Positions 6,464 to 38,952 of a stretch of 64,000 nucleotides of DNA are shown one piece after another. The position numbers and the translations under genes were made by a program. The stretch lies in IMG/VR virus record IMGVR_UViG_3300033156_000312, positions 1-64,000 of that record; one strand, written 5' to 3'. Position 1 is the stretch's first letter. Every line of letters begins with the position of its first letter. The stretch is from a virus. The notes beneath the pieces are model-generated. The model saw only the letters and a program-made list of their open reading frames with translations. It was not told where the DNA came from and ran no database searches.

Positions 6464-6994
6464 ATGAAATTCAAGGTAGCCTTTTATAAGAATGGGAGCT
6501 ATCTAATTAAGATGGTTCTTGATGAAGGTGAAGAAGTTTGGGCAAAAACTACAAAAAAAGTTCATGATTATGCTAAAAAGAACTTTACAGAGAATGAAGA
6601 GTGTGATTACGATTATGAAGAAAAGAATGGTGAATACTTCATAAATCGTATTTTGAAAAAAGGTTCTGGCACTACAAAGAAATCTTCTAAAACAGAAAAC
6701 AGAAAGAAATATTGTGAATGTGGAGCTGAAATAAAGAATACAAAGTATGATAAATGTTACACTTGCAATCAGAAAAGCGGAAAAACTGACAGCAGTGGGA
6801 AACCTAATTATGGTGCAGGTGCACCTTATGGAAGCTTACTCCCAGATGAAGCAGAAAGAAGAAACAAATTAGCAACACTTTCTTCCGTCTGTGAAGCTGT
6901 GCAAGTTATGACAGGTCAAGTGCAAGACGCAGACACACTTGCCGATATGATTTTAGTGATTTATGATAAATTATATGACAAATTATTCAGATAA
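6464..6994 (+). CDS. zinc-ribbon protein, possible ssDNA-binding
   Basis: 176 residues with a perfect AGGAGG site. Residues 1-65 look like a small beta-barrel (MKFKVAFYKNGSYLIKM, EYFINRILKKG), followed by a flexible Lys/Ser linker, a four-Cys zinc ribbon (YCECGAEI, KCYTCNQKS, about residues 83-105), a Gly-rich linker and a C-terminal helical part. This barrel-ribbon-linker layout is common in phage ssDNA-binding or recombination accessory proteins, but no exact match is recognised. Confidence 0.6.
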   Translation: MKFKVAFYKNGSYLIKMVLDEGEEVWAKTTKKVHDYAKKNFTENEECDYDYEEKNGEYFINRILKKGSGTTKKSSKTENRKKYCECGAEIKNTKYDKCYTCNQKSGKTDSSGKPNYGAGAPYGSLLPDEAERRNKLATLSSVCEAVQVMTGQVQDADTLADMILVIYDKLYDKLFR

Positions 6995-7013
6995 TTTGAA
7001 AGAAGGTGTAAAT

Positions 7014-7598
7014 ATGTCGAAGAAAATAAAACATAAAAAGAACCCTGCTCACAGAGGAAAAGAACAAAAGATAGATATAGAACAGATATTGCTCAAAAAT
7101 CGTCAGTTATTTTTATTTGGTGCGATAGATGAAAAAATGGCATACAATGTAACTCAACGAATGATAGCTCTTGCCAGAATTAGCTCAGAACCTATTGTGC
7201 TATACATTAATTCGTCTGGCGGTTGTGTAGATGATGGATTTGCGATAATTGATTGTATGAAAGGAGTTAATGTTCCTGTCATCACGTTTATAGTAGGAAA
7301 CGCTTGTTCAATGGCAGGATTAGTTGCAATAGCAGGGGATAAGAGAGTAATAACGGAACATTCAGTGATAATGTTTCACGATATGCAAGCAGGTATTATA
7401 GACTATGCAACAAAAATAGAAGATAGAGCAGAATTTTATAAAAGAGAACAGAAAAAATTGTTTGATTTTATTCGAAAATATACAAACCTATCAGAAAAAG
7501 AAATCCAAAAAGCTATTCATGGAGAACTATGGTTATATCCTCAAGAATGTATTAAAAAAGGTATAACTGATATGATTGCTGGCGATAAGGAGAAATAA
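7014..7598 (+). CDS. ClpP-like serine protease
   Basis: 194 residues from the ATG at 7014, chosen because AGAAGGTG lies 7 nt upstream; a longer frame from 6963 would overlap the previous gene. The ClpP fold is clear: YINSSGGCVDDGFAIID (oxyanion strand and loop), nucleophile Ser99 in GNACSMAG, His122 in VIMFHDMQ. Where ClpP has its catalytic Asp the sequence has Glu171 (HGELWLYPQE). ClpP works as tetradecameric chambers fed by AAA+ unfoldases; no unfoldase is visible here, so it may pair with host ClpX/ClpA. It opens a run of four consecutive protease genes. A role as head maturation protease is unlikely away from capsid genes. Confidence 0.85.
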   Translation: MSKKIKHKKNPAHRGKEQKIDIEQILLKNRQLFLFGAIDEKMAYNVTQRMIALARISSEPIVLYINSSGGCVDDGFAIIDCMKGVNVPVITFIVGNACSMAGLVAIAGDKRVITEHSVIMFHDMQAGIIDYATKIEDRAEFYKREQKKLFDFIRKYTNLSEKEIQKAIHGELWLYPQECIKKGITDMIAGDKEK

Positions 7599-7599
7599 A

Positions 7600-7863
7600 A
7601 TGATAAGAAATAAAACTCATATTTTTAGGATAATGACACTATTGTTTAAGGTTTGGGTAAGAAATCCTAATTTAAGATTTTGTCAATTGATACAAAACTG
7701 TTTTAGAAGTAGTTGGGCCAACAAAGATGAAAAAATTTATTACGGACAAGGGAAAGATATTTATTACGAAGAAGATAAAGAATTAGAACGTAGATTGAGA
7801 GAAGTTTATTTGAGAGGAGATAGTAATGGGAACACTAATAAGAATACTAAAAGCAAGTTTTAA
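7600..7863 (+). CDS. small phage protein with LRF-QL motif
   Basis: 87 residues from ATG 7600 (GGAGAAATAAA upstream). FKVWVRNPNLRFCQLIQN followed by an acidic stretch (IYYEEDKELERRLREVYL) resembles a small family common in phages, in which a WxxxPdLRxxQL motif precedes a conserved acidic D/E-D segment. Function unknown. It lies between the ClpP-like gene and the anchored protease gene and overlaps the latter by 38 nt. Confidence 0.6.
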   Translation: MIRNKTHIFRIMTLLFKVWVRNPNLRFCQLIQNCFRSSWANKDEKIYYGQGKDIYYEEDKELERRLREVYLRGDSNGNTNKNTKSKF

Positions 7864-8563
7864 ACCATTATTGATTGTATTATTAGTTTTCAACTTGATA
7901 GCTATTTATAATTTGCTTGAAACCCTTGCAATATTTCAACAACAAATAAATCTAAAAGAGGAAATATTACTTCAAGAAATTCAATGTTTGAGAAAAGAAA
8001 TTAAAACCGTAGATATACCCGAAATTGAAAAATTGAAAAAAGCAAATGTATTAATAGAAAATGTAACTATAAAACGTTGTGGGTCGGGGACACATATCAA
8101 AATAGATAAAAAAAGTTATATTTTGACTTGTGCTCATTTAATAAAAGAGAATAATAATATAATTAACGCTAAATTAGATAATGGAGATACGCATCCATTA
8201 CAATTATTAAAAAAGAATAAAGAATTAGATTTAGCTTTATTTAAAATTTGGGCAGTGGGGGATTTGCCTTATTTAGAAATTAGTGATGAAGAACCGAAAG
8301 AAGGAAGCGAAGTAACTGTAATAGGAAATCCCAACGCTATTGTTGATGTTGTAACAGATGGAATAATATCACATATAGACGATAAAGGATATACTATTAC
8401 AAATACAATATTTTTTGGAAGTAGTGGGGGTTGTGTTATATACAAAAATCGCATCATTGGAGTAGTTACACAATTTCGTATTTTCTTTAATCCTCCTGTA
8501 ATAGCCAATTATGGTTATGCTATAAAATTAAGTATAATTCAAGAATTTTTAAAAGGACTATAA
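7826..8563 (+). CDS. membrane-anchored trypsin-like serine protease (DegS-like topology)
   Basis: 245 residues. Residues 14-35 form one N-terminal membrane span, 36-70 a coiled-coil-like stalk, and 80-245 a chymotrypsin-fold domain with His104 (TCAHLI), Asp135 (ELDLALFK) and Ser200 (FGSSGG). One N-terminal anchor plus a periplasmic trypsin domain is the topology of DegS, which makes the first cut in an anti-sigma factor; unlike DegS there is no PDZ domain. GAGGAGATAGTA is a strong ribosome site. It lies two genes upstream of an RseP-like protease, supporting a shared pathway. Confidence 0.85.
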   Translation: MGTLIRILKASFKPLLIVLLVFNLIAIYNLLETLAIFQQQINLKEEILLQEIQCLRKEIKTVDIPEIEKLKKANVLIENVTIKRCGSGTHIKIDKKSYILTCAHLIKENNNIINAKLDNGDTHPLQLLKKNKELDLALFKIWAVGDLPYLEISDEEPKEGSEVTVIGNPNAIVDVVTDGIISHIDDKGYTITNTIFFGSSGGCVIYKNRIIGVVTQFRIFFNPPVIANYGYAIKLSIIQEFLKGL

Positions 8564-8564
8564 A

Positions 8565-8708
8565 ATGAGAGACCCAAAATTACATTCTCGTTACATAGAT
8601 GGTAGAACATTAAAAGCTTATTACTGCATAGAACCTAATTGTAATAACGATTTTATTTGTAAATTTTGCGGAAAATCGCAAATTAAAAAGAAAGGTGATG
8701 ACAAATGA
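8565..8708 (+). CDS. 47-aa zinc-finger protein, possible HNH-module remnant
   Basis: 47 residues with CIEPNC and CKFCGKS, a possible zinc knuckle. The segment HSRYIDGRTLKAYYC resembles the start of the HNH endonuclease at 38.3 kb (NSNYIDGRCLKKHYC), so this may be a leftover or domesticated N-terminal module of a homing gene inserted between the two proteases. AAAAGGACT gives a ribosome site, and its TGA overlaps the next ATG. Confidence 0.5.
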   Translation: MRDPKLHSRYIDGRTLKAYYCIEPNCNNDFICKFCGKSQIKKKGDDK

Positions 8709-9490
8709 AAAATCTAATGAAATACCTTGCTCTGATTACTTTAGCAATTGCCTTAATTTGTCAGCAAAATCCGAATAATTCTCAAGATGTGTTTGTTACT
8801 GATGAGAAGACATTACAATCTAAATTTGATACAAAACGGTTTGATTCCTTATTTACTTCGGAAACTCTCAAATTGAGACAAGGCATGGTTGCTGTAAAAG
8901 TTGGTAAAAGAGGTGGTGCAGGAGTAATAGTTGAGATAGATGATAAGTATTTATATGTGCTTACCGCTAAACATATTTTATTACAAAAAGGACAACTTGC
9001 GATAGAAGTTTTAGATAAAAACAGTAAATCAACTATTATCAAAAATATTTCAAAAACAAATACAGTAAAACATAGAAAAGTAGATTTGGGATTAATTAAA
9101 GTGCCAAGACCTGAAGGAGATTTCGGGACAATTAAATTAGCTGAGAGACCTGTTTTAATTGGTGAAAAAATACGTGTGGTCGGACATCCCTGTAATATTT
9201 ATTATGCTATTACAGAGGGTATAGTTTCAAGTTATAAGAAAAGAAAATTTCAAGGAATTAAAGAAGAATACATAGTTGTATCTGCTCCTTCTTTTAGTGG
9301 AGGGTCAGGAGGAGCTTTAATAAATAGCAAAGGACAATTAGCAGGTATTGTGGTCGGGATAATGTATATAGGACGAAATGCGATGGATTATAAAAACACT
9401 GTATATGTGTTTCATATCGTGTATGTAACAAAATTAGAATTTATTAAAGATTTCTTGTATAAAAATGGAATTATAATGAGGATTCAATGA
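8705..9490 (+). CDS. exported trypsin-like serine protease
   Basis: 261 residues. Residues 1-20 are a signal peptide (KYLALITLAIALICQQ); the Cys at 19 is close to a lipobox but not canonical, so lipidation is uncertain. The trypsin-fold triad is His90 (LTAKHILL), Asp127 (KVDLGLIKV) and Ser201 (FSGGSGGAL). It is a second, distinct S1 protease next to the anchored one, with no PDZ domain. It overlaps the site-2 protease gene by 4 nt (ATGA), so the two are probably made in step. Likely located in the periplasm or on the cell surface. Confidence 0.85.
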   Translation: MKNLMKYLALITLAIALICQQNPNNSQDVFVTDEKTLQSKFDTKRFDSLFTSETLKLRQGMVAVKVGKRGGAGVIVEIDDKYLYVLTAKHILLQKGQLAIEVLDKNSKSTIIKNISKTNTVKHRKVDLGLIKVPRPEGDFGTIKLAERPVLIGEKIRVVGHPCNIYYAITEGIVSSYKKRKFQGIKEEYIVVSAPSFSGGSGGALINSKGQLAGIVVGIMYIGRNAMDYKNTVYVFHIVYVTKLEFIKDFLYKNGIIMRIQ

Positions 9491-10134
9491 TGATAAGCAT
9501 AGTCGTGTTCCTAATGGGATTGCTGTTAGCCATTATCATTCATGAAGTAGGGCACACACTCAGTGCTCTGCTTCTGGGCGTAGAAGTGGAAGTGTTTAGT
9601 ATAGGATTTGGAAAAGTGATTTGGAAGAAAAAATGGAGAAATATACAATGGCAAGTAGCTTTAATTCCTTTAGGAGGTTATACAAAATTAGCTGGAGAAG
9701 ATAATAAATCTCCTCACGGATTTTTGTCTCAACCTTATTGGAAGAAAGTCATTATTTTAATATCAGGGGTATTAATGAATTTGTTACTTGCTTGTGTGAT
9801 ATATCTTATTCATTACGAAAATATTTGGACAGGTATGCGAATAGATTGGAACATATTGACTTGGATATTCACACATCAAAGAGATTTAATATATACATTT
9901 GTATATGTAGCACAACCAAATCTTTTACTTTTACAAATTAGTTTAATAAATTTCGGGTTAGCTTTATTTAATATATTGCCTCTGCCTTCTTTGGATGGTG
10001 GCATGTTATGGGCAGTGTTATTAGAAAATAAAGTTGCAGATTTTGAAACCTTTTTGAAAAAATTTAGTTATTATGGATTTTTATTTCTATTATTCTTACA
10101 ATTTATTTTAATCTATTGGGTCTATTGGGGATAA
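9487..10134 (+). CDS. RseP-like site-2 metalloprotease (M50)
   Basis: 215 residues with about four membrane spans. HEVGH (19-23) in the first span is the zinc site; IPLGGYTKLAGED (60-72) matches the membrane-reentrant segment of RseP; NILPLPSLDGG (162-172) is the second signature carrying the third zinc ligand Asp170. These three motifs define site-2 proteases that cleave within membrane helices. E. coli RseP has about 450 residues with two PDZ domains; here they are absent, giving a minimal core. It directly follows two S1 proteases, which would be the expected site-1 enzymes. Confidence 0.9.
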   Translation: MMISIVVFLMGLLLAIIIHEVGHTLSALLLGVEVEVFSIGFGKVIWKKKWRNIQWQVALIPLGGYTKLAGEDNKSPHGFLSQPYWKKVIILISGVLMNLLLACVIYLIHYENIWTGMRIDWNILTWIFTHQRDLIYTFVYVAQPNLLLLQISLINFGLALFNILPLPSLDGGMLWAVLLENKVADFETFLKKFSYYGFLFLLFLQFILIYWVYWG

Positions 10135-10137
10135 AAA

Positions 10138-11718
10138 ATGTTAAAGTGGTTCTTTAGTCCTATAACAGGAGAAAATAAATTGCGTTACTTTTTTACGGCA
10201 GATTACCACTTAGGCCACGCTAACATCATAAAATATTGCAATAGACCTTTCAAAAGCGTGCATCATATGAATAAAGAGATAATCAGGAGACACAATGAAA
10301 GAGTAAAAGAAGATGATATAGTTTTTATGATTGGAGATTTTTGTGTATCAGGAGATACTTATATAGATACTCCTCAAGGACGCAAGCAAATTCGCATTTT
10401 AAAAAAAGGGGATAAAGTATATTCGGTTAATTTAAAAAATAAACAGTTAGAGATTTCTAATATAAATAAAGTTTGGAGAACTAAAAGTAAAATACGTTAT
10501 CATCTGATATTAGAAAATAATATTACGCTTAAAGTTACTTCAGAACATCCTTTCGCTGTTAGTAGAAATAAGGTTTTAAAGTGGGTAAAAGCTAAAAATT
10601 TAAAATCAGGAGACGTTCTATTTAGAAAGAAAGATTCATTACCACGAATATTGAAATTAAAAAAACAGGAAAAAAACTATATGATAGGATATATTTTGGG
10701 ATATAGTTATGGAGATGGATACTTTAATAAGTATTCTGTAGTTATAGATAGTAAAGATAAAGAAGGACTACAAAGAATAGTAAATTATATTCAAAAATTA
10801 TATAACAGAAAATTAAAAATACGACTAACAAAACTTGTATATTATCGTTTAAGAATACCCTATGATATATATAATTCTTTGAAAAATCGGGATTTAACTT
10901 TCAAAAAAATCAATCGAAATATACCAAAATGGTATTATGGTTTTTTAGCAGGATTTTATGATGCAGAAGGTAATTGCCAGTATCAAAATCATAATTGGTA
11001 TATTAGATTAGGGTCTACTGATAAAAAATTATTTAATTTTGTTGTTTTGTTATTAAAATATTTTAATTTATCTATTATTACAAGAAAATGCAAACAATAC
11101 AAACATTATAAAGTTTTTTATGAGATAAAATTATTAACTAAAGAAACTTTTAATTTTTTCTTACAAATTAGACCTGCAATTAAAAGAAAATATCCAGATT
11201 TAAAAATATTATCTAATGGAACTAAAATTAAACAAATAATTAAAGTTAAACATAAATATAACAAATATTTTAAAAATTATAATCTAACTGTTGAACCAAA
11301 CAACAATTATTTTATTAAAGGAATTTTAGTTCATAATTGTTTCAAAGGTGGAAAAGAAGGCGGGAAAATTTCAGCGTTGAAATGGGAAAAAAGATTAAAT
11401 GGCAAAATAATATATATCAAAGGAAATCATGATAAAAGGAATTCTGTCAAAACGATAATAGAACGTCTTGTAATAAAATATGAAAATAAAAGAATTAATT
11501 TAGTGCATAGGCCCGAATTTGCAGATGTAAATTATGAAATTAATTTCACTGGACACGTGCATAAAAACTGGAAAATTGAAAGAATAAGAAAAGGATTTCA
11601 ATTTACGAACTGTATTAACGTAGGTATAGATGTATGGGATTTTTATCCTGTAACTTATGAAGAGATTATGAAAAGATATAGTCATTGGAAAAAGAACTTG
11701 AAATTAAAATATGAATAA
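10138..11718 (+). CDS. metallophosphoesterase interrupted by a LAGLIDADG intein
   Basis: 526 residues before splicing. The host protein is a calcineurin-type phosphoesterase: ADYHLGHANII (metal motif 1), MIGDF (motif 2), IKGNHDK (motif 3) and FTGHVH (motif 5). Right after GDF an insertion starts at Cys69 and ends at His399-Asn400, followed by Cys401, so splicing would restore GDFCFKGG and a 194-residue enzyme. The intact extein family cleaves phosphodiesters or phosphomonoesters; its substrate is unknown. Gene ends overlap by 8 nt with the following HExxH protease gene. Confidence 0.9.
   Translation: MLKWFFSPITGENKLRYFFTADYHLGHANIIKYCNRPFKSVHHMNKEIIRRHNERVKEDDIVFMIGDFCVSGDTYIDTPQGRKQIRILKKGDKVYSVNLKNKQLEISNINKVWRTKSKIRYHLILENNITLKVTSEHPFAVSRNKVLKWVKAKNLKSGDVLFRKKDSLPRILKLKKQEKNYMIGYILGYSYGDGYFNKYSVVIDSKDKEGLQRIVNYIQKLYNRKLKIRLTKLVYYRLRIPYDIYNSLKNRDLTFKKINRNIPKWYYGFLAGFYDAEGNCQYQNHNWYIRLGSTDKKLFNFVVLLLKYFNLSIITRKCKQYKHYKVFYEIKLLTKETFNFFLQIRPAIKRKYPDLKILSNGTKIKQIIKVKHKYNKYFKNYNLTVEPNNNYFIKGILVHNCFKGGKEGGKISALKWEKRLNGKIIYIKGNHDKRNSVKTIIERLVIKYENKRINLVHRPEFADVNYEINFTGHVHKNWKIERIRKGFQFTNCINVGIDVWDFYPVTYEEIMKRYSHWKKNLKLKYE
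10342..11337 (+). mobile_element. intein with LAGLIDADG homing endonuclease
   Basis: 332 codons. Block A starts CVSGDTYIDT at Cys1; block B is VTSEHPF with the TxxH histidine; two LAGLIDADG-like motifs (IGYILGYSYGDGYF and YGFLAGFYDAEGN) mark the endonuclease; block F/G ends YFIKGILVHN before extein Cys. All residues needed for class 1 splicing (Cys1, block B His, penultimate His, terminal Asn, +1 Cys) are visible, so it is probably active. The endonuclease would spread the intein into empty alleles of the phosphoesterase gene. Confidence 0.9.
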
Positions 11719-16198: not shown

Positions 16199-16885
16199 AT
16201 GAATAAACGTAATTTGACATATTATTGTAAAAATTGTAAAACTGTTATCGGTTGGAAATCTGCTTTATATGGTTCTGGATTATGTATTTCTTGTTCTGTT
16301 AAAATTAGATGGAAAGATAAAAAATATAGACAAAAAATGAATCGAATAGGTAAGAAAGCAAACGCTTATAAATCTGGTATATATTGTAAAAATCATAAGA
16401 ATCACTGTATAGATTGTGGAAAGGAAATAACTTCAACTGCAAAAAGATGCAATTCTTGTGCTGTTATAAAACATGGCAAATGTATAAATCAAAATTATTG
16501 TATAGATTGTGATAAAGTAATTAGTTTCGGCACAGCTATATATGGTCAAGGAAGATGTAAAAGTTGTGCTAAAAAAGGAAATTTGAATGGTAATTATATA
16601 GACGGAACATCGTATGAACCTTATAGTTCCGAATTTACACAAAGATTGAAATATGAAATTAGAGAAAGAGATAATTTTGAATGTCAAAATTGTTATATGA
16701 CAGAAGAAGAACATCTTTCAGTTTATGGAAGAGTATTGGAAGTTCATCATATTGATTATAATAAACAAAATTGTAATAAAAATAATTTGGTAACTTTATG
16801 TAAACAATGTAATTTAAGAGTAAATAAGAATAGAGATTATTGGTTTGCTTATTTTACTTATATTTTCAATCAGGAAATCAATTAA
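16199..16885 (+). CDS. HNH homing endonuclease with N-terminal zinc modules
   Basis: 228 residues. Three CxxC/CxxC zinc modules (YYCKNCKT, HCIDCGKEI, YCIDCDKVI) precede a classic HNH domain: FECQNC, LEVHHIDYNK, NNLVTLCKQCN. The C-terminal RDYWFAYFTYIF is shared with two other loci in this window (30.4 and 38.9 kb). Free-standing HNH genes cut an intron-less or gene-less allele and spread by repair. It lies just upstream of a resolvase-like gene, without sign of a self-splicing intron. Confidence 0.85.
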   Translation: MNKRNLTYYCKNCKTVIGWKSALYGSGLCISCSVKIRWKDKKYRQKMNRIGKKANAYKSGIYCKNHKNHCIDCGKEITSTAKRCNSCAVIKHGKCINQNYCIDCDKVISFGTAIYGQGRCKSCAKKGNLNGNYIDGTSYEPYSSEFTQRLKYEIRERDNFECQNCYMTEEEHLSVYGRVLEVHHIDYNKQNCNKNNLVTLCKQCNLRVNKNRDYWFAYFTYIFNQEIN

Positions 16886-17174: not shown

Positions 17175-18293
17175 ATGAAATGGAATAGAGATAGACTAAA
17201 TTTAATTAAAGCTTATCTGACCCAGGGCTATACCTACGCCGAGATAGCCAAGAAGTTAAAATTGACCTATGACCAAGTGGGCCACGCTGTCAACCGTTAT
17301 AATCTAAAAGATGATATAGTGAAAGAATTAACGACAGTGAAGAAAGGCACGAAGCTAAAGAAAGATGAGATAGCTCAAGTGGCTCGAATTCTTGGAGAAA
17401 GACTTTATGAGAATTATAAAAAAATTGAGATAGTTGAGCCCAAAGCTACTTCTTGTAAAGGTAAGAGAGAAGAAATGTCTGTTCTTGACCTTTCTGATTT
17501 GCATATTGGTATGATTAACAAAGTTTTTGACAGCGAAAGCGGAAAACAAGCAGTTACATACAATATGAATATATTTAGAAAGGAAATGGGGATATTACAA
17601 AATTCCATTGAACAAATACACGATATTCTCTCTCATTCCTACAATTTGAAAGAACTTACTATTTTCTTACTTGGGGATATAGTAACAAATGATAGAATAT
17701 TCCCAGAGCAAACATTTGAAATAGAGAAAGTAGTAGGCGACCAAGTATTTGACGCTGTAACTTATCTTACAAAGTTTATAACCAATTTGCTAAACTTATA
17801 TGAAAAGATTACAGTAGTCGGAGTTGTAGGAAATCATGGCAGGTCAAATCCTACTCATTATTCAGAGCCAGTAGAGAATAATTTTGAATATTTTCTCTAC
17901 AAAATGCTTCAAAAACAGTTTGCAGACAGTAAAAGAGTGAATGTTATTGTTCCACAAACTCGTAGATATATTCACAAAATTTATAAATGGAGACATCTTA
18001 TAGAGCACGGCGATTCAATGCGAGGAAGTAGTGATTCTTATATTGAGAAACAAATCAAAGATTTATCTCTCAATATTGGAGGATTTGATGTTATGCACTT
18101 TGGTCATTACCATAAATTAAAAGAAAGAGAGATGGCTGATAAGGTATTGATAAAACAGAATGGATGTTGGATTGAGAAAGATAATTATGCTTTCAAGAAA
18201 TTCAAAACTTATTCTGTTCCCAAACAGCATTTCTTTGGTTGTTCTCCAAAGCGAGTTGAAACCTGGGGATATAAAATTGACCTAAGGGGTTGA
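17175..18293 (+). CDS. HTH-metallophosphoesterase fusion
   Basis: 372 residues. Residues 7-44 form a helix-turn-helix (YTYAEIAKKLKLTYDQVGHAV), and from about 100 a phosphoesterase domain carries LSDLHIG, LLGDIV, VGNHGR and HFGHYH. The combination suggests a DNA-directed phosphoesterase or nuclease. GAGGAGGCGATAAC gives a strong start. The first 150 bp are visibly more GC-rich than the surroundings. Similar HTH-phosphoesterases occur in many large phages, usually without assigned roles. Confidence 0.75.
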   Translation: MKWNRDRLNLIKAYLTQGYTYAEIAKKLKLTYDQVGHAVNRYNLKDDIVKELTTVKKGTKLKKDEIAQVARILGERLYENYKKIEIVEPKATSCKGKREEMSVLDLSDLHIGMINKVFDSESGKQAVTYNMNIFRKEMGILQNSIEQIHDILSHSYNLKELTIFLLGDIVTNDRIFPEQTFEIEKVVGDQVFDAVTYLTKFITNLLNLYEKITVVGVVGNHGRSNPTHYSEPVENNFEYFLYKMLQKQFADSKRVNVIVPQTRRYIHKIYKWRHLIEHGDSMRGSSDSYIEKQIKDLSLNIGGFDVMHFGHYHKLKEREMADKVLIKQNGCWIEKDNYAFKKFKTYSVPKQHFFGCSPKRVETWGYKIDLRG

Positions 18294-19023: not shown

Positions 19024-20913
19024 ATGCAATATAAACAAATAATTCTATCAAAGCTTATTGACTATTTAAAGTATAAAAAAATCAAATTGAGTCGAGGGCA
19101 TATAAAGACTTTTTCTTGTCCTTTTTGTGGCAAGACAGCAACATTATTACCAAACTCTCATTATGTAAATTGTTTTTTTTGTCGTCCTAAAGAAAATTTT
19201 GGAGAATATTTTACAGTTATAGATATTGCAAGAAAATTGGATAAACCAGATGCTTCAGATGAAGAAATCTTACAATATCTTAAAGATATATTAAACATTA
19301 AAGTAATGACAAAACAAGATGAAGTAAAAGTAGAAGATATATTAAAGAAATATCAAGAATGGGGGTTCGATTTAGTTCCAATAGTTACTAATGGAAAAAT
19401 TCCCGCAGAAAAAGAATGGACAAAGAAAACCCATAAAGATATAAATGAATGGATGCGATGGATAAAAGACGGTCTTAACATAGGAGTTAAAACGGGAAAA
19501 GTAAGCAATATTATTGTAGTGGATATAGACCAAAAACCAATACCAAATGAAATCAAAAATTTATTAAGAGATGATAGCACTTTTATTCAAGAAACAACAA
19601 AGGGCTATCATTTATTTTATAAATATGACTCTGACTTACCAAAAACTCGTATAGATGAAATCAAAATAGATATAGAGAATGATGGTGGGCAAGTTGTGAT
19701 ATATCCTTCGAGAATTAAAGATAAGGAAAGAAAAATTCAACAATTTGGAAAGATAGCAGAAATGCCCGAAGAATTAAAAGAATATCTAAAGAAACAAATG
19801 ACCGTCCCTCGCAAAACTCAAAGTGAAAAGATAAGTGAAGATATACAAACAGAAGATTTTAATTTAGGGGTATTGGGAGAAGGACAAAGAAATTCATCTT
19901 TAGTAAGAATAGGTGGAATTTTGAGAAAAGAACTTAATAAAAAACAAACCGAGTATACTTTACATATGCTTAATAAAGTTTTATGTAAACGACCTCTCCC
20001 CGTCAAAGAAATGCGAGCTATGATAAATAGCTTAGATAAATATACTCACTTTGATGAAAAAGAGTTGGCTCATAAAGTATTAGAATATTTGAGAGACATA
20101 GAAGAAGCTAATAGAAATGAAATTGCTATGGCAATAGTAGGAACTAATCGAGGAGAGGAAAAAAAGAGAATAGATAAAGCTCTACAATATTTGGTTAAAG
20201 AAAGATATGTATCTAAAATAGGGAGAAGTTATTCCATTCGAAAAAAAGTAGAATGGAAAGAAACTTTGATTAATATAGGAGTTCCGATTGATTTTCAAAT
20301 GCCATATTTTTATGATTTAATGCACTTTCATTTTGGAGATTTAATTATTATCGGGTCAAGAAACGCTACAGGAAAAACTCATATAGCCATGAATATAGTT
20401 AAACAATTAGTTGAACAGAAAATTACTCCTTATTATCTTTCTCTTGAAGGTGGTTCAAGATGGGCAAAAATAGCACTACAACTCGGATTAAAAGAAAGAG
20501 ATTTTAAGTGGGAAGAAACTTCTAATCCTAATAATGTAGAATTAGAACAAAATGCTATTACTATAATTGATTGGTTATGTCCAAAAAGTTATGCAGAAAC
20601 AGATAAAATATTACAAAACTTAAATGATAAAGTGCGTGAAACTAAAGGAATATTAATTGTTTTTGTTCAGTTACGAGATAATAACGAATGGTTAGCTAAA
20701 GATTTAATAAAACAATTCCCTGCTTTTGCTTGTAGATATATTTATGATAATGAAGATAGTGGAGAATATGGCAAATTTAAAATAGACAAATTAAGAGATG
20801 CTAAAATACGTATTAAAAGTTATGAATTACCAGCATATTATAATTGGGAAACTAAAGAACTCATATTAGTTTCAGAATTAGAACAAAAAAAGAAATTAGA
20901 AAATGAAGAATAA
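19024..20913 (+). CDS. primase-helicase (AEP prim-pol plus RecA-fold ATPase)
   Basis: 629 residues. An N-terminal zinc finger uses C32, C35, C50 and C53. Residues 100-265 fit the prim-pol domain: IGVKTGKVSNIIVVDIDQ, ETTKGYHLFYKY and GGQVVIYPS, with the Asp pair in VVDID as the metal site. A winged-helix-like linker follows, and the C-terminus is a RecA-fold ATPase with Walker A GSRNATGKTH (about 443-452). It should make primers and perhaps unwind DNA at the fork, replacing DnaG and DnaB. The Walker B region appears degenerate (ILIVFVQLRDN), so the ATPase half may be atypical. Confidence 0.8.
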   Translation: MQYKQIILSKLIDYLKYKKIKLSRGHIKTFSCPFCGKTATLLPNSHYVNCFFCRPKENFGEYFTVIDIARKLDKPDASDEEILQYLKDILNIKVMTKQDEVKVEDILKKYQEWGFDLVPIVTNGKIPAEKEWTKKTHKDINEWMRWIKDGLNIGVKTGKVSNIIVVDIDQKPIPNEIKNLLRDDSTFIQETTKGYHLFYKYDSDLPKTRIDEIKIDIENDGGQVVIYPSRIKDKERKIQQFGKIAEMPEELKEYLKKQMTVPRKTQSEKISEDIQTEDFNLGVLGEGQRNSSLVRIGGILRKELNKKQTEYTLHMLNKVLCKRPLPVKEMRAMINSLDKYTHFDEKELAHKVLEYLRDIEEANRNEIAMAIVGTNRGEEKKRIDKALQYLVKERYVSKIGRSYSIRKKVEWKETLINIGVPIDFQMPYFYDLMHFHFGDLIIIGSRNATGKTHIAMNIVKQLVEQKITPYYLSLEGGSRWAKIALQLGLKERDFKWEETSNPNNVELEQNAITIIDWLCPKSYAETDKILQNLNDKVRETKGILIVFVQLRDNNEWLAKDLIKQFPAFACRYIYDNEDSGEYGKFKIDKLRDAKIRIKSYELPAYYNWETKELILVSELEQKKKLENEE

Positions 20914-21814
20914 AAAATTAAATCAATATATAATATCAGCTAAAAAGTTAATCAACATGCCTTATAATCAATTAAATTTAGCTAATTACAAGAAAAAATT
21001 TGTTAATATTTATAAATTAAAAAATATACACTTTATAAATACTTCTTCTAAAAAACCTATTAAATTAATGTCTGGACAATCTAAAAATGCAGGTATTATT
21101 GCTTCTTCAATTCCATCTTCCAAAAGAAATATTTATTTAATAGGTAAGGGGATTTTATTTGATGCAGGAGGATATGATTTAAAATCTTCTGGAAAAATGA
21201 ATAATATGAAATGTGATATGAGCGGAATGGCAATAGCATTTGCTGTATCTTCTTATTTTAAAAATAATAATGTAATCGCTTATTGTCCTGTCGCTACAAA
21301 TTTTATACATAATAACCAAATTACTCCTGGCGATTACATCAAGATAGGAAATAAAACTGTAGAAATAACAAATACAGATGCAGAAGGTAGATTAATTTTA
21401 GCTGAAGCATTAAGTCAACTTACTGTTGAAAAGAATGATATAATTATAACAATAGCTACTTTAACAGGAGTATGTGCTTATGCTATTGGAGAAAAAGCAA
21501 CCGCTTTTATGACTCCAACTAAAGAATTTACTCATAAATACAAACTTGCGAGCAAAAAAGCAAACGAACTTGCTTGGAGACTTCCATTATGGGACTATTT
21601 ACAAAAATCTTTTAATAAAAAAAGAATAACGAATACTTCTAAGGAAAAATGTGGGACTATTATGGGGGGAATGTTCCTAAAACAATTTATTCCAAACCCC
21701 AAAAATTGGATTCATCTCGATATAGCTTATTCGGCTTATGATAACAAAAAAAATAAGGCGACTGGAGAACCTATAATGAGTTTAGTTTACTTTGTTGAGG
21801 AGTTATTGAAATGA
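20903..21814 (+). CDS. leucyl aminopeptidase (M17)
   Basis: 303 residues. All M17 active-site residues are visible: K82 and D87 in GKGILFDAGG, K94 in YDLKSSGKM, D105 in MKCDMSG, and D159, E161, R163 in NTDAEGRLILAEAL. Bacterial PepA has about 500 residues; here the N-terminal domain is reduced to about 70 residues. M17 enzymes remove N-terminal residues using two metals in hexamers; PepA also binds DNA in site-specific recombination. Its place between the primase-helicase and a RuvC-like resolvase makes a DNA-linked role worth considering. Overlaps both neighbours. Confidence 0.85.
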   Translation: MKNKKLNQYIISAKKLINMPYNQLNLANYKKKFVNIYKLKNIHFINTSSKKPIKLMSGQSKNAGIIASSIPSSKRNIYLIGKGILFDAGGYDLKSSGKMNNMKCDMSGMAIAFAVSSYFKNNNVIAYCPVATNFIHNNQITPGDYIKIGNKTVEITNTDAEGRLILAEALSQLTVEKNDIIITIATLTGVCAYAIGEKATAFMTPTKEFTHKYKLASKKANELAWRLPLWDYLQKSFNKKRITNTSKEKCGTIMGGMFLKQFIPNPKNWIHLDIAYSAYDNKKNKATGEPIMSLVYFVEELLK

Positions 21815-25477: not shown

Positions 25478-25888
25478 ATGGATAGCGGAAATATACATAA
25501 GGTCTGGGGAACAAGAAGAAGAATACTTTTAACAAATACTATAGAATTAGATTTGCTTCATTTAAAGAAAGATACTTTTTGTAGCACACATTCTCACAAA
25601 TCTAAAATTAATCTATTTACTGTTATTAAGGGAAAAGTTAGGATTGAAACGGAGTTTGGAAGAATTATCTTAAAGAAAAATGAATCTTTTGAAGTTAGAC
25701 CGCCATTAAAACACCGTTTCGTAGCTTTAATGAATAGTATAATGGTTGAAACTGCTTATGTAAATAATGGAAAGATAGATACAAATGATATTAATAGAAA
25801 CGTCTTAGGGGGAAGAATTATTAAAGGAAAATATATTAGTATTCCCGAATTAAGAAAAAAAGGATATTTGGAATTAAATAATGAATAA
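25478..25888 (+). CDS. cupin-fold protein
   Basis: 136 residues. KVWGTRRRILLT, then CSTHSHKSKINLFTVIKGKV (cupin motif 1 with the His pair), a middle LKKNESFEVRPP and LKHRFVALMNS (motif 2 with His) match a single-domain cupin of the mannose-6-phosphate-isomerase-like type. Metal and substrate are unknown; sugar-phosphate binding is one option given the surface-modification genes further on. It overlaps the next gene by 8 nt. Confidence 0.7.
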   Translation: MDSGNIHKVWGTRRRILLTNTIELDLLHLKKDTFCSTHSHKSKINLFTVIKGKVRIETEFGRIILKKNESFEVRPPLKHRFVALMNSIMVETAYVNNGKIDTNDINRNVLGGRIIKGKYISIPELRKKGYLELNNE

Positions 25889-26672
25889 ACGACAGAAAAA
25901 ATATTTAACAAATAAATGTAAAGATTGTGGGAAAACTTGTTGTGATGTATCAATAAGATGTAAAAAATGTGCAAATATAAAAGTTAATAAAATGAAAAAA
26001 TTTAATTTTTCAAAAAAATTATTAGAAAAAGAATATATATTAAATAGAAAGTCTTTGAAACAAATTGCGAAAAAATTAAATTGTTCTTCTGCGACAATTG
26101 CAAATTATTTAAAATTGTATAATATTAAAACAAGAACTTCTTGGGAAGGGTCAGAATATAAATCAAAAAAATGTAAATATTGTAAAGGAGAATTCATTTC
26201 TGTTTATAAACAACAAAAATATTGCTCTGATATTTGTGCGAGATATGATTGGAGAAAAAATAATATAGATAAGATTCGCAAACAACAACGAGAATTCGCC
26301 AATAAAAATTATTCTAAATATAAAATAAGAATACAAAAATACGGTAAAAATTTTCGTAAAAAATATCCATGGATAGTAACCTTTAAAAATATAAATCAAA
26401 GATGTAATAATCCGAATAATTCGCATTTTAAATATTATGGAGGTAGAGGAATAAAAAATCGACTTACAATAAAAGATTTAAAATTTCTTTGGTTTAAAAA
26501 CAAAGCATATTTAATGAAATGCCCCAGTATTCATAGAATAAATAATGATAAAGATTATACATTAAAAAATTGTGAATATATTGAACTATCTAAAAATATT
26601 AGTTATCGAAATATAATAAATAATATCAAACGATTAAAGAGGAGAATATTAAAATTCAATGCAATTAGTTAA
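25881..26672 (+). CDS. homing endonuclease-like protein (zinc, HTH, AP2/HNH-type)
   Basis: 263 residues. CKDCGKTCC and CKKC form an N-terminal zinc module, SLKQIAKKLNCSSATIANYL is a helix-turn-helix, CKYCKGEF with CSDIC is a second zinc module, and the C-terminal RCNNPNNSHFKYYGGRGIKN plus SIHRINNDKDYTLKNCEYI matches a phage endonuclease family with an H-R-I-N-N and N-C core. It is AT-richer than the neighbouring polymerase gene and overlaps it by 14 nt, as expected for a mobile gene next to polB. Confidence 0.75.
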   Translation: MNKRQKKYLTNKCKDCGKTCCDVSIRCKKCANIKVNKMKKFNFSKKLLEKEYILNRKSLKQIAKKLNCSSATIANYLKLYNIKTRTSWEGSEYKSKKCKYCKGEFISVYKQQKYCSDICARYDWRKNNIDKIRKQQREFANKNYSKYKIRIQKYGKNFRKKYPWIVTFKNINQRCNNPNNSHFKYYGGRGIKNRLTIKDLKFLWFKNKAYLMKCPSIHRINNDKDYTLKNCEYIELSKNISYRNIINNIKRLKRRILKFNAIS

Positions 26673-29648: not shown

Positions 29649-30278
29649 ATGAAGAAGGTTATCTTCGCTGACCCTCATATTTCTGAAAAGTCAATTACAG
29701 AACTTGAAACTATTTTTAAAGAAATAGTAAAACAAGATGGAGATATTTTGATTATGCTGGGAGATTATTATGACAAAAAAAGACCCACAGCAAAAGAGAT
29801 TATTTTTGGAACTAAATGGGCTTACTTTTTTAAACGATTATATAAAAAAGTTATATTTCTTAGAGGTAATCACGATAAGACCAGAGATACAAGTGCAATA
29901 GATTATTTACAATATTTAGGAATAGAAGTTGTAGATGAATACATAGATGATAATAATATTTATTATGGGCATTATATGACTGACCAATCTACTTATGAAT
30001 ATGGCACTCATGAAAAAAAAGCCAAAGATTTAACAAAGTATCAATTAGCGATTTTAGGTCATCAACATACTTACCAAAAGTTAGAACGAAACGTATTACA
30101 TTTAGGGTCTTGTAGATATGTAAATTTTAATGAAGTCAATGATGATTATAAATATATGATGATTATGTTAGATGGACTTAACGGGCAAAGAGTAAAATTG
30201 AATACTCCAATTCCGATGAAAGATTTTAATTCTGTAACAGAATTAAAAGAAGAAATTAAAAAATATGAAAACAAATAA
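29649..30278 (+). CDS. SbcD/Mre11-like metallophosphoesterase
   Basis: 209 residues. FADPHISEK (motif 1), MLGDYYDKK (motif 2), LRGNHDKT (motif 3) and LGHQHTYQK (metal motif) define a calcineurin-type nuclease fold. With an SbcC/Rad50-like ATPase gene 2 kb downstream it most likely is the nuclease subunit of an SbcCD/gp46-47-type complex that trims DNA ends for recombination. It lacks the C-terminal capping domain of E. coli SbcD (400 residues). TTAGGAGATAAAAA is the ribosome site. A stand-alone phosphodiesterase is the alternative. Confidence 0.75.
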   Translation: MKKVIFADPHISEKSITELETIFKEIVKQDGDILIMLGDYYDKKRPTAKEIIFGTKWAYFFKRLYKKVIFLRGNHDKTRDTSAIDYLQYLGIEVVDEYIDDNNIYYGHYMTDQSTYEYGTHEKKAKDLTKYQLAILGHQHTYQKLERNVLHLGSCRYVNFNEVNDDYKYMMIMLDGLNGQRVKLNTPIPMKDFNSVTELKEEIKKYENK

Positions 30279-30441
30279 AAAAATCTTAATACAAAAATAT
30301 ATAAAAGAGAACAAATTTATGCACAAAATAGCAAAAGAATTGAATTGTTGCACAGCTACCATATTTTATAATTTAAGAGCAAACAAAAATCGGGACTATT
30401 GGTATGCTTATTTTACTTATATAATGGAGAATTGGAAATGA
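30265..30441 (+). pseudogene. chimeric remnant of homing genes (58 aa)
   Basis: A 58-codon frame joins an HTH-like half (FMHKIAKELNCCTATIFYNL, similar to the HTH of the endonuclease at 25.9 kb) to NKNRDYWYAYFTYIMENWK, the C-terminal tail of the HNH genes at 16.2 and 38.3 kb. The catalytic HNH core is missing. It begins inside the end of the SbcD-like gene and its TGA overlaps the next ATG. It looks like the collapsed scar of a homing endonuclease, possibly still translated. Confidence 0.6.
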
Positions 30442-30937: not shown

Positions 30938-31113
30938 AAAGAAGAAAAAAATTAAGAACTTACATTGTAACTTATGAACCAGATGATTGTTATGATTATA
31001 TTACTGTAAGAGCTTCATCTTTAGAAAGAGCGAAAGAAATAGCTATGAAAAAAGAACAGTTAGATGAATATCAAATTGTTGATATAGTGCCCAAAGGCAA
31101 ATGGAGGAAATAA
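30934..31113 (+). CDS. hypothetical small beta-alpha protein
   Basis: 59 residues from ATG 30934 (ATGA overlap, AAGGAGAT upstream). RTYIVTYEPDDCYDYITV then SSLERAKEIAMKKE and YQIVDIVPKG has the strand-helix-strand look of small phage proteins that fold like a ferredoxin half. Function unknown. Confidence 0.6.
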   Translation: MKRRKKLRTYIVTYEPDDCYDYITVRASSLERAKEIAMKKEQLDEYQIVDIVPKGKWRK

Positions 31114-31115
31114 AA

Positions 31116-31997
31116 ATGAAAAAGGATAAAAAGCAAAGTATGAAAAAGAATTGTAAACTATGTAATAATTTATTTATTGCTACAGGCAATAATCACAAAT
31201 ATTGTAAAAATTGCTGTCTTTTAAATAATAAAGAAAAAACTAAAATATATAATCAAAAATATAGAAAAGAACATAAAAATCCAAATCCTAAACATAAATT
31301 TTGGACAAAGCAAGAAGAAAAATATCTTAAAGAAAATTATGAATGGGGAAATAAAAAGGAAATATTGTCATATTTAAAAAGAAGTTGGTATTCGATTAAT
31401 CATCATGCTAAATTTCTAAAAATATGTAGATTTAGGAGAAATAGCAAAATAAAAAATATATTAGGTAATAACTTTAGTTTTCGTATCAATAATCCTGGTG
31501 GACATGTTCGTATTAGTAATCCTTCTTTAGGAGTTTATAATCAATTAGCTCATAGATATATTTGGGAAAAATATTATAACAAAAAAATACCTAAAGATTG
31601 TTATATTCATCATAAAGATGGCAATCCTCAAAATAATAATATTGAAAATTTAACTTTAGTCAAAATAACTGAACATTTTAATGTAGAAGCAATTAGACGA
31701 ATTGCTCAAGAATGTTTTGAAATAGCAGATGCTCATGGATTTTGGAAAAGAAAAAATGGTAAACCTTATAGAAATGTAGGAGAAGCTTTATGTTTAATAG
31801 TTTCTGAAGTTAGCGAAGCATTTGAAAGTTATAGAAAAAATCCAAAGGATAAAGAACATTTTGTAGAAGAATTGGCTGATGTGTTAATACGATTATTAGA
31901 TTTTAGTTATGGAATGGGATTACATATTGAAAATGCTTTACGAAAAAAAATGGAAATAAATAAAAAGAGGCCTTATAAACATGGCAAAAGATTCTAA
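31116..31997 (+). CDS. HNH homing endonuclease fused to MazG-like pyrophosphohydrolase
   Basis: 293 residues from ATG 31116 (GGAGGAAATAAAA upstream). Residues 13-40 are a zinc module (CKLC, YCKNC); 60-110 a SANT/Myb-like DNA-binding part (FWTKQEEKYLKENYEWG); 115-185 an HNH domain with CYIHHKDGNPQNNNIENL; and 187-293 a MazG-type domain with IVSEVSEAFES and VEELADVLIRLLD giving the ExxE-ExxD metal site. MazG enzymes hydrolyse NTPs or dNTPs and, in phages, may counter ppGpp. The mobile nuclease has joined in frame with the metabolic enzyme, whose own start codon is gone. Confidence 0.8.
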   Translation: MKKDKKQSMKKNCKLCNNLFIATGNNHKYCKNCCLLNNKEKTKIYNQKYRKEHKNPNPKHKFWTKQEEKYLKENYEWGNKKEILSYLKRSWYSINHHAKFLKICRFRRNSKIKNILGNNFSFRINNPGGHVRISNPSLGVYNQLAHRYIWEKYYNKKIPKDCYIHHKDGNPQNNNIENLTLVKITEHFNVEAIRRIAQECFEIADAHGFWKRKNGKPYRNVGEALCLIVSEVSEAFESYRKNPKDKEHFVEELADVLIRLLDFSYGMGLHIENALRKKMEINKKRPYKHGKRF

Positions 31998-38330: not shown

Positions 38331-38337
38331 GACAGTG

Positions 38338-38952
38338 ATGAAAACTAAAAAACGTAATCGCAAAGGCAAAAATAACAGTAATTATATAGATGGAAGATGT
38401 TTAAAAAAGCATTACTGTAAAGATTGTGGAAAAAAGATTTCTTTACAAACTGCTATATATGGAAAAGGAAAATGTAATTCTTGTTCTCATATAATACACG
38501 GAGAATATTTAAAAGTTCATTATTGTATAGATTGTAATAAAGAAATAGGAAATAGAGCTACAAGATGTAGAAAATGTGCAGACAAATTACATAGCGAAAG
38601 AATGTCAACTAAGTTGAATTATTTTGCTGGAAAACACTTTACAAAAGAAAAAAACCCGAATTGGCAATATGGACTTTCATTTGAAGAATATGGTGCAGAA
38701 TTCGATAATGCTCTCAAAGAACAAGTAAGACAAAGAGACCATTATAAGTGTAGAATTTGTGGATGTAGTCAAGTAGAGAACGAAAGACAGTTAGATGTTC
38801 ATCATATTGATTATGATAAGAAAAATAACGATATGAACAATCTTTTGACTTTATGTGTGCATTGTCATAGAAAGACCAATCACAATCGAGATTATTGGTT
38901 TGCTTATTGTCGATATATTATTTCATATTTAAAAAGAAATAAGTTAATATAA
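38338..38952 (+). CDS. HNH homing endonuclease with zinc modules
   Basis: 204 residues from ATG 38338 (a GTG at 38335 is possible). It opens TKKRNRKGKNNSNYIDG, has two zinc modules (YCKDCGKKI, YCIDCNKEI), and the HNH core YKCRICGCSQ, QLDVHHIDYDKKN, NNLLTLCVHCHRK. The tail HNRDYWFAYCRYI is shared with the genes at 16.2 and 30.4 kb. It splits the sulfation genes from the LicD-like gene, so it is probably a later insertion. Confidence 0.85.
   Translation: MKTKKRNRKGKNNSNYIDGRCLKKHYCKDCGKKISLQTAIYGKGKCNSCSHIIHGEYLKVHYCIDCNKEIGNRATRCRKCADKLHSERMSTKLNYFAGKHFTKEKNPNWQYGLSFEEYGAEFDNALKEQVRQRDHYKCRICGCSQVENERQLDVHHIDYDKKNNDMNNLLTLCVHCHRKTNHNRDYWFAYCRYIISYLKRNKLI

What the first reader, a model, noticed from the sequence alone, without database searches (positions are those of the whole stretch)
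10342..11337. Intein inserted in the metal-binding motif of a phosphoesterase
A 332-residue intein with all splice residues and two LAGLIDADG motifs starts right after GDF of the second metal motif. Inteins favour conserved active sites of essential nucleic-acid enzymes, so this location suggests the phosphoesterase is important to the phage. The host enzyme would stay inactive until splicing occurs, which allows conditional control.
Basis: partly seen in the sequence, partly recalled or inferred. Interest (0 to 1): 0.75.

Follow-up and report, generated by a model that had tools for sequence, protein, structure and literature searches.

The report
Intein in a phage phosphoesterase
A phage enzyme gene carries a self-removing protein insert (an intein with its own DNA-cutting domain) exactly inside a metal-binding motif; this is a textbook parasitic element at a new site in a known type of host enzyme, and relatives show the same enzyme fold has been invaded separately at two other metal motifs.

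Summary
ORF 10138-11718 encodes a calcineurin-like phosphoesterase interrupted after GDF (metal motif II) by a 332-residue class 1-type intein (10342-11337): Cys1, block B TSEH, two LAGLIDADG motifs, VHN, +1 Cys. Pfam Intein_splicing E=3e-19, LAGLIDADG_3 E=1e-12. About 228 fetched relatives are uninterrupted there; the closest (60-70% identical) read GDF|CF directly, so the segment is an insertion, not a normal domain. Homologues favour a TTG start at 10180, giving a 180-residue rather than 194-residue product. Interpretation: an intein in an active-site motif is supported; 'important enzyme' only weakly; 'conditional control' has no evidence. The best reading is a mobile homing element that splices spontaneously. 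New here: a related phage (L026) has an intein of another subfamily in the same enzyme after motif V (GHVH|), and the known mycobacteriophage RDF-type intein sits after motif III (GNHD|), so three metal motifs of this fold have been hit separately. Phages carrying the nearest relatives are intein-rich. New insertion site of a known kind; modest interest.

The parts
10138..11718 (+). ORF of the unspliced precursor (526 aa from ATG)
10180..10182 (+). alternative and probably true start codon TTG (AGGAG at 10167-10171, 8-nt spacing); homologues start here
   Evidence: sequence; alignment with L002
10138..10341 (+). N-extein (phosphoesterase part 1, ends ...IGDF)
10201..10209 (+). metal motif I, D-Y-H
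   Evidence: invariant D22/H24 in alignments
10333..10341 (+). metal motif II, G-D-F, directly before the insertion
   Evidence: G66 D67 invariant
10342..11337 (+). intein, 332 aa, C1 ... H-N
   Evidence: Pfam PF14890 E=3.2e-19; absent from about 228 relatives
10342..10359 (+). splice block A, CVSGDT (Cys1 nucleophile)
10537..10548 (+). splice block B, TSEH (T-x-x-H)
10687..10719 (+). LAGLIDADG motif 1, GYILGYSYGDG
10939..10971 (+). LAGLIDADG motif 2, GFLAGFYDAEG
   Evidence: PF14528 covers intein residues 198-270
11290..11337 (+). splice blocks F and G, VEPNNNYFIKGILVHN
11338..11718 (+). C-extein, begins with Cys+1 (CFKGG)
11422..11433 (+). metal motif III, G-N-H-D (the motif hit by the mycobacteriophage intein)
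11551..11562 (+). metal motif V, G-H-V-H (the motif hit by the L026 intein)

Best explanation
A LAGLIDADG homing intein has inserted into a phage calcineurin-like phosphoesterase gene at the codon after metal motif II. The precursor is translated whole (526 aa, or 512 from TTG). The intein then excises by class 1 splicing: N-S shift at Cys1, transesterification to Cys+1, Asn332 cyclisation, S-N shift. GDF and CFKGG are joined into a 180-194 aa enzyme. The endonuclease part probably cuts intein-free alleles around GGAGATTTT|TGTTTC, so the element copies itself into them during mixed infection. Shown here: anatomy, all splice residues, insertion relative to homologues, separate origin from the other phosphoesterase inteins. 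Inferred: splicing, endonuclease activity, homing, metal-dependent esterase activity.
For: Intein and LAGLIDADG profiles far above cut-offs; intein N- and C-terminal NCBIfam domains. Both extein halves match phrog_547 and the family matches 1xm7. About 228 relatives lack the insert at this site, with gaps of 1-22 residues against 333 in the window. Many intein-free relatives read GDFCF, as the spliced product would, and the DNA around the site is well conserved among GDFCF alleles, as a homing target needs. The extein halves are mostly predicted with pLDDT about 85-98. Intein GC is 22.5% against 29.4% for the exteins; it and two homing-endonuclease-like genes are among the lowest-GC stretches of the left 44 kb. 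A full-length intein relative (27-30% identical) sits in a GTP cyclohydrolase gene of another genome.
Against: No experiment. No near-identical intein-free allele was found (closest 60-70% protein identity), so recent homing cannot be shown. The intein half of the structure model is low-confidence. The low GC is a weak argument (z about -2).
Confidence: 0.94

Rival explanations
1. The intein is a post-translational switch: splicing is held back until a signal (redox, metal, temperature) and the phosphoesterase is activated only then.
For: It sits on a metal motif, so the precursor should be inactive; conditional splicing exists for some inteins (review PMC7765530).
Against: All canonical residues including TxxH and penultimate His are present. 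No regulatory element was seen. Mutating the mycobacteriophage RDF intein's natural Gly to His slowed splicing, which shows tunability in principle, but the natural form spliced completely (PMC5050341).
Confidence: 0.05
2. The intein is a decaying element: it still splices but the endonuclease is dead, so it is only vertically inherited.
For: Unique among about 228 relatives at this site; no other intein-bearing copy at this site in IMG/VR under the pattern used.
Against: Open frame, two LAGLIDADG motifs with acidic residues kept.
Confidence: 0.2
3. The segment is a normal Hint-type or other domain of the phosphoesterase rather than an intein.
For: PT-HINT also matches, as it does for many inteins.
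Against: Absent from relatives; exact restoration of GDF-CF on removal; full set of splice blocks plus endonuclease.
Confidence: 0.01

Closest known systems
Intein in mycobacteriophage RDF/metallophosphoesterases (Bxb1 gp47 family; Bethlehem gp51, Kugel gp52; Kelley et al. 2016, PMC5050341)
   Same: Intein in a phage calcineurin-like phosphoesterase, directly after a metal motif; intein-free alleles in sister phages; the Bethlehem one was shown to splice.
   Different: It sits after motif III (HEGNHD|C...GN|SRARDY in Kugel gp52), not motif II; its intein is of another subfamily (penultimate Gly, Ser+1, block F with 'WC') with no BLAST match to the window intein at E 0.01; the host enzyme is only distantly related.
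Intein-like insert in the orthologous phosphoesterase of viral contig IMGVR_UViG_3300029811_000124 (L026, P0003)
   Same: Same enzyme family (54.7% identical exteins); insert begins with Cys and ends with Asn directly at a metal motif; exteins rejoin without a gap.
   Different: After motif V (GHVH|C...MCN|SAWQ); penultimate Cys, Ser+1; Pfam gives only a sub-threshold LAGLIDADG_3 hit (E=5e-4), but it is homologous end to end to the Kugel intein (E=3e-16) and to PolB inserts of related phages (E to 5e-27). Separate gain.
Intein in a GTP cyclohydrolase I gene (L255, from a genome sampled in the phylum of an Omnitrophota MAG)
   Same: Closest full-length relative found of the window intein (27% identity over 371 alignment columns, E=2.6e-22), also ends VHN|C.
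   Different: Unrelated host enzyme.
Aquifex aeolicus aq_1665 (PDB 1xm7), COG4186/phrog_547 phosphoesterases
   Same: Same family by sequence profile and same motifs as the spliced enzyme (E=5.6e-26).
   Different: No intein; function also unknown.

Membership tests
Class 1 intein | Cys/Ser/Thr at position 1 (block A) | tested here: met
   Cys1 at 10342
Class 1 intein | Block B T-x-x-H | tested here: met
   TSEH, intein residues 66-69
Class 1 intein | C-terminal His-Asn and Cys/Ser/Thr +1 | tested here: met
   VHN then Cys+1 at 11338
Class 1 intein | Match to intein profile above curated cut-off | tested here: met
   PF14890 69.7 bits vs 35.8
Class 1 intein | Insert absent from homologues, exteins continuous on removal | tested here: met
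Class 1 intein | Autocatalytic splicing | not testable with these tools
   needs expression
LAGLIDADG homing endonuclease | Two LAGLIDADG helices with acidic residues | tested here: met
   GYILGYSYGDG and GFLAGFYDAEG; PF14528 E=1.2e-12
LAGLIDADG homing endonuclease | Cleavage of the intein-free site and homing | not testable with these tools
   needs cleavage assay
Calcineurin-like phosphoesterase (phrog_547 / COG4186) | D-x-H, GD, GNH[D], GHxH metal motifs | tested here: met
   all present; D, H, GD, GNH, GH-H invariant in alignments
Calcineurin-like phosphoesterase (phrog_547 / COG4186) | Metal-dependent phosphoesterase activity | not testable with these tools
   needs assay
Mycobacteriophage RDF-type phosphoesterase intein (same allele) | Same insertion site and same intein subfamily | tested here: not met
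   motif II vs motif III; no significant similarity between the two inteins

The most novel reading that the evidence does not exclude
Phage calcineurin-like phosphoesterases are intein targets at several metal motifs (II in the window, III in mycobacteriophages, V in L026), with inteins of different subfamilies, and metal occupancy of the half-built site (Cys1 lies two residues after the metal Asp) gates splicing, making the enzyme metal-responsive.
Probability: 0.04. Interest if true: 0.7.

Novelty: new member of a known kind. Interest (0 to 1): 0.33.

Why it matters
It adds an insertion site to the catalogue of phage inteins and, with L026 and the mycobacteriophage case, gives a natural experiment: one enzyme fold invaded separately at three metal motifs. 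That supports the view that target conservation drives where inteins sit. It also flags a set of uncultured phages that are rich in inteins (RNR, PolA, PolB, SNF2 helicase, C5-methylase, aminotransferase, radical SAM) and may be sources of inteins for biotechnology.

Tried and rejected
Second insert at GDF|C in IMG/VR: the pattern NRPF-N81-GDxC-xxxT gave only L234, an uninterrupted false positive. The first pattern for motif V had a wrong spacer; the corrected one refound only L026's own contig plus unrelated proteins. Searching IMG/VR with the intein protein gave only an unrelated Hint domain (L005). A terminase search for relatives of the phage found nothing. Structure prediction of the precursor: extein halves mostly confident, intein poor, Foldseek matches to phosphoesterases weak, so not used as evidence for the intein. 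MAFFT placed the extein residues after GDF against the intein start in A3; the site was therefore judged from separate profiles for the two halves. Rfam: no RNA family matches in the window, so no known intron family was detected. Mycobacteriophage Bethlehem records were not held under the accessions tried; Kugel was used instead.

Full report
Observation. The ORF 10138-11718 (+) reads 526 residues; codon 69 (10342) is the Cys that opens a 332-residue segment ending His-Asn at 11337, followed by Cys. Pfam gives Intein_splicing at 69.7 bits (E=3.2e-19), LAGLIDADG_3 (E=1.2e-12) and, as often for Hint folds, PT-HINT. Blocks A, B, two LAGLIDADG motifs and F/G are all present with canonical residues. 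This is the only intein profile match in the 82,045-bp viral record of which the window is part.

Host enzyme. With the segment removed the exteins match phrog_547 phosphoesterase (E=1.6e-34, two stretches), Metallophos_2 and, with a family profile, the solved A. aeolicus protein 1xm7 (E=5.6e-26). The D-x-H, GD, GNH and GHxH ligands are invariant across the alignments. The insertion lies after the F of GDF, i.e. right after metal motif II.

Insertion versus domain. I fetched relatives from viral contigs and species genomes and searched all their reading frames with separate profiles for the two halves. In about 228 entries (a few are duplicates) the two halves follow each other with profile gaps of 1-22 residues; only the window has 333. 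Among 404 deposited phage records with a match, none has a place covering 80% of the precursor. The nearest relatives, L094 and L095 (60-70% identical), read GDF|CF without interruption. DNA around the junction (-9 to +5) is well conserved among GDFCF alleles. So the segment is an insertion.

Other phosphoesterase inteins. In L026, a related viral contig whose phosphoesterase exteins are 54.7% identical to the window's, a 326-residue segment beginning CLDEKTEIL and ending IMCN lies right after GHVH, motif V. Its Pfam signal is weak (LAGLIDADG_3 E=5e-4), but it is homologous end to end to the intein of mycobacteriophage Kugel gp52 (E=3e-16) and to two inserts in PolB of related phages (E to 5e-27), while it shares only a short N-terminal stretch with the window intein (E=0.002). 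Kugel gp52 carries its intein after GNHD, motif III; Kelley et al. [quoted passage not shown] On a tree of 85 phosphoesterases the window and L026 need two separate gains. Thus three metal motifs of this fold have been invaded separately by inteins of at least two subfamilies. The exact motif III placement is my reading of Kugel; I found no earlier report of the L026 insert.

Origin and surroundings. The closest full-length relative found for the window intein is in a GTP cyclohydrolase gene of a sampled genome (27-30% identity), so the donor is unknown. Intein GC is 22.5% against 29.4% for the exteins; in the left 44 kb the only other 996-bp stretch this low holds an endonuclease-like gene at 25881. 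Eleven of 22 records with close phosphoesterase relatives also encode the window's PolB, and some of those PolBs carry inserts at motif A (L265), motif C (L267) or in a linker (L266). Eight of 20 such records hold intein profile matches, in RNR, DegT aminotransferase, SNF2 helicase, C5-methylase, PolA and others. The group looks intein-rich. Host: the nearest cellular homologues are in Omnitrophota MAGs (47-52%), a weak hint only, since those contigs may be viral.

Mechanism. The most likely account is spontaneous class 1 splicing that restores the phosphoesterase, with a homing endonuclease that spreads the element into intein-free alleles. Splicing, cleavage and enzyme activity are inferred, not shown. 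The claim of conditional control has no evidence. The claim that the enzyme must be important rests on a general tendency of inteins; target conservation alone would explain the site.

Verdict. A real, well-formed intein at a phosphoesterase site that I did not find described; the literature searches covered open-access papers only. New member of a known kind, modest interest.

Noticed in passing
L026:2968-4521 (+): Orthologous phage phosphoesterase with a different intein-like insert after metal motif V (GHVH|C...MCN|S), penultimate Cys instead of His. The same viral record also has an HNH-type intein in a radical SAM protein inside its Cys motif (L241).
   Followed up: partly
L265, L266, L267: PolB genes of phages related to the window's carry intein-like inserts at polymerase motif A (DLG|C...GN|SAYP), motif C (DTDS|C...HN|S) and in a linker; the window's own PolB is uninterrupted.
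   Followed up: partly
31101-31997 (+): HNH_3 endonuclease fused in frame to a complete-looking MazG-like pyrophosphohydrolase domain; low GC (24%).
   Followed up: no
16199-16885, 25881-26672, 38335-38952, 30265-30441 (+): Several homing-endonuclease-like ORFs (HNH or HTH type); three of them (not 25881-26672) share a tail NRDYW[FY]AY..YI, and 30265-30441 looks like a remnant. 25881-26672 is the lowest-GC gene of the window (21%).
   Followed up: no
L171:2539-3351: Omnitrophota phosphoesterase frame with an extra stretch PVRSRMPKASDKSIRDIASNG after EEMN, which looks like an inserted repeat element.
   Followed up: no
17175-18293, 29649-30278 (+): Two more metallophosphoesterase genes in the same phage (one with an N-terminal HTH); three in all, the other two uninterrupted.
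   Followed up: no
6963-10134 (+): Run of protease-like genes just upstream of the phosphoesterase, judged by eye: ClpP-like, two trypsin-like proteases and a site-2-protease-like membrane protein; a leucyl aminopeptidase (M17) lies at 20903-21814.
   Followed up: no
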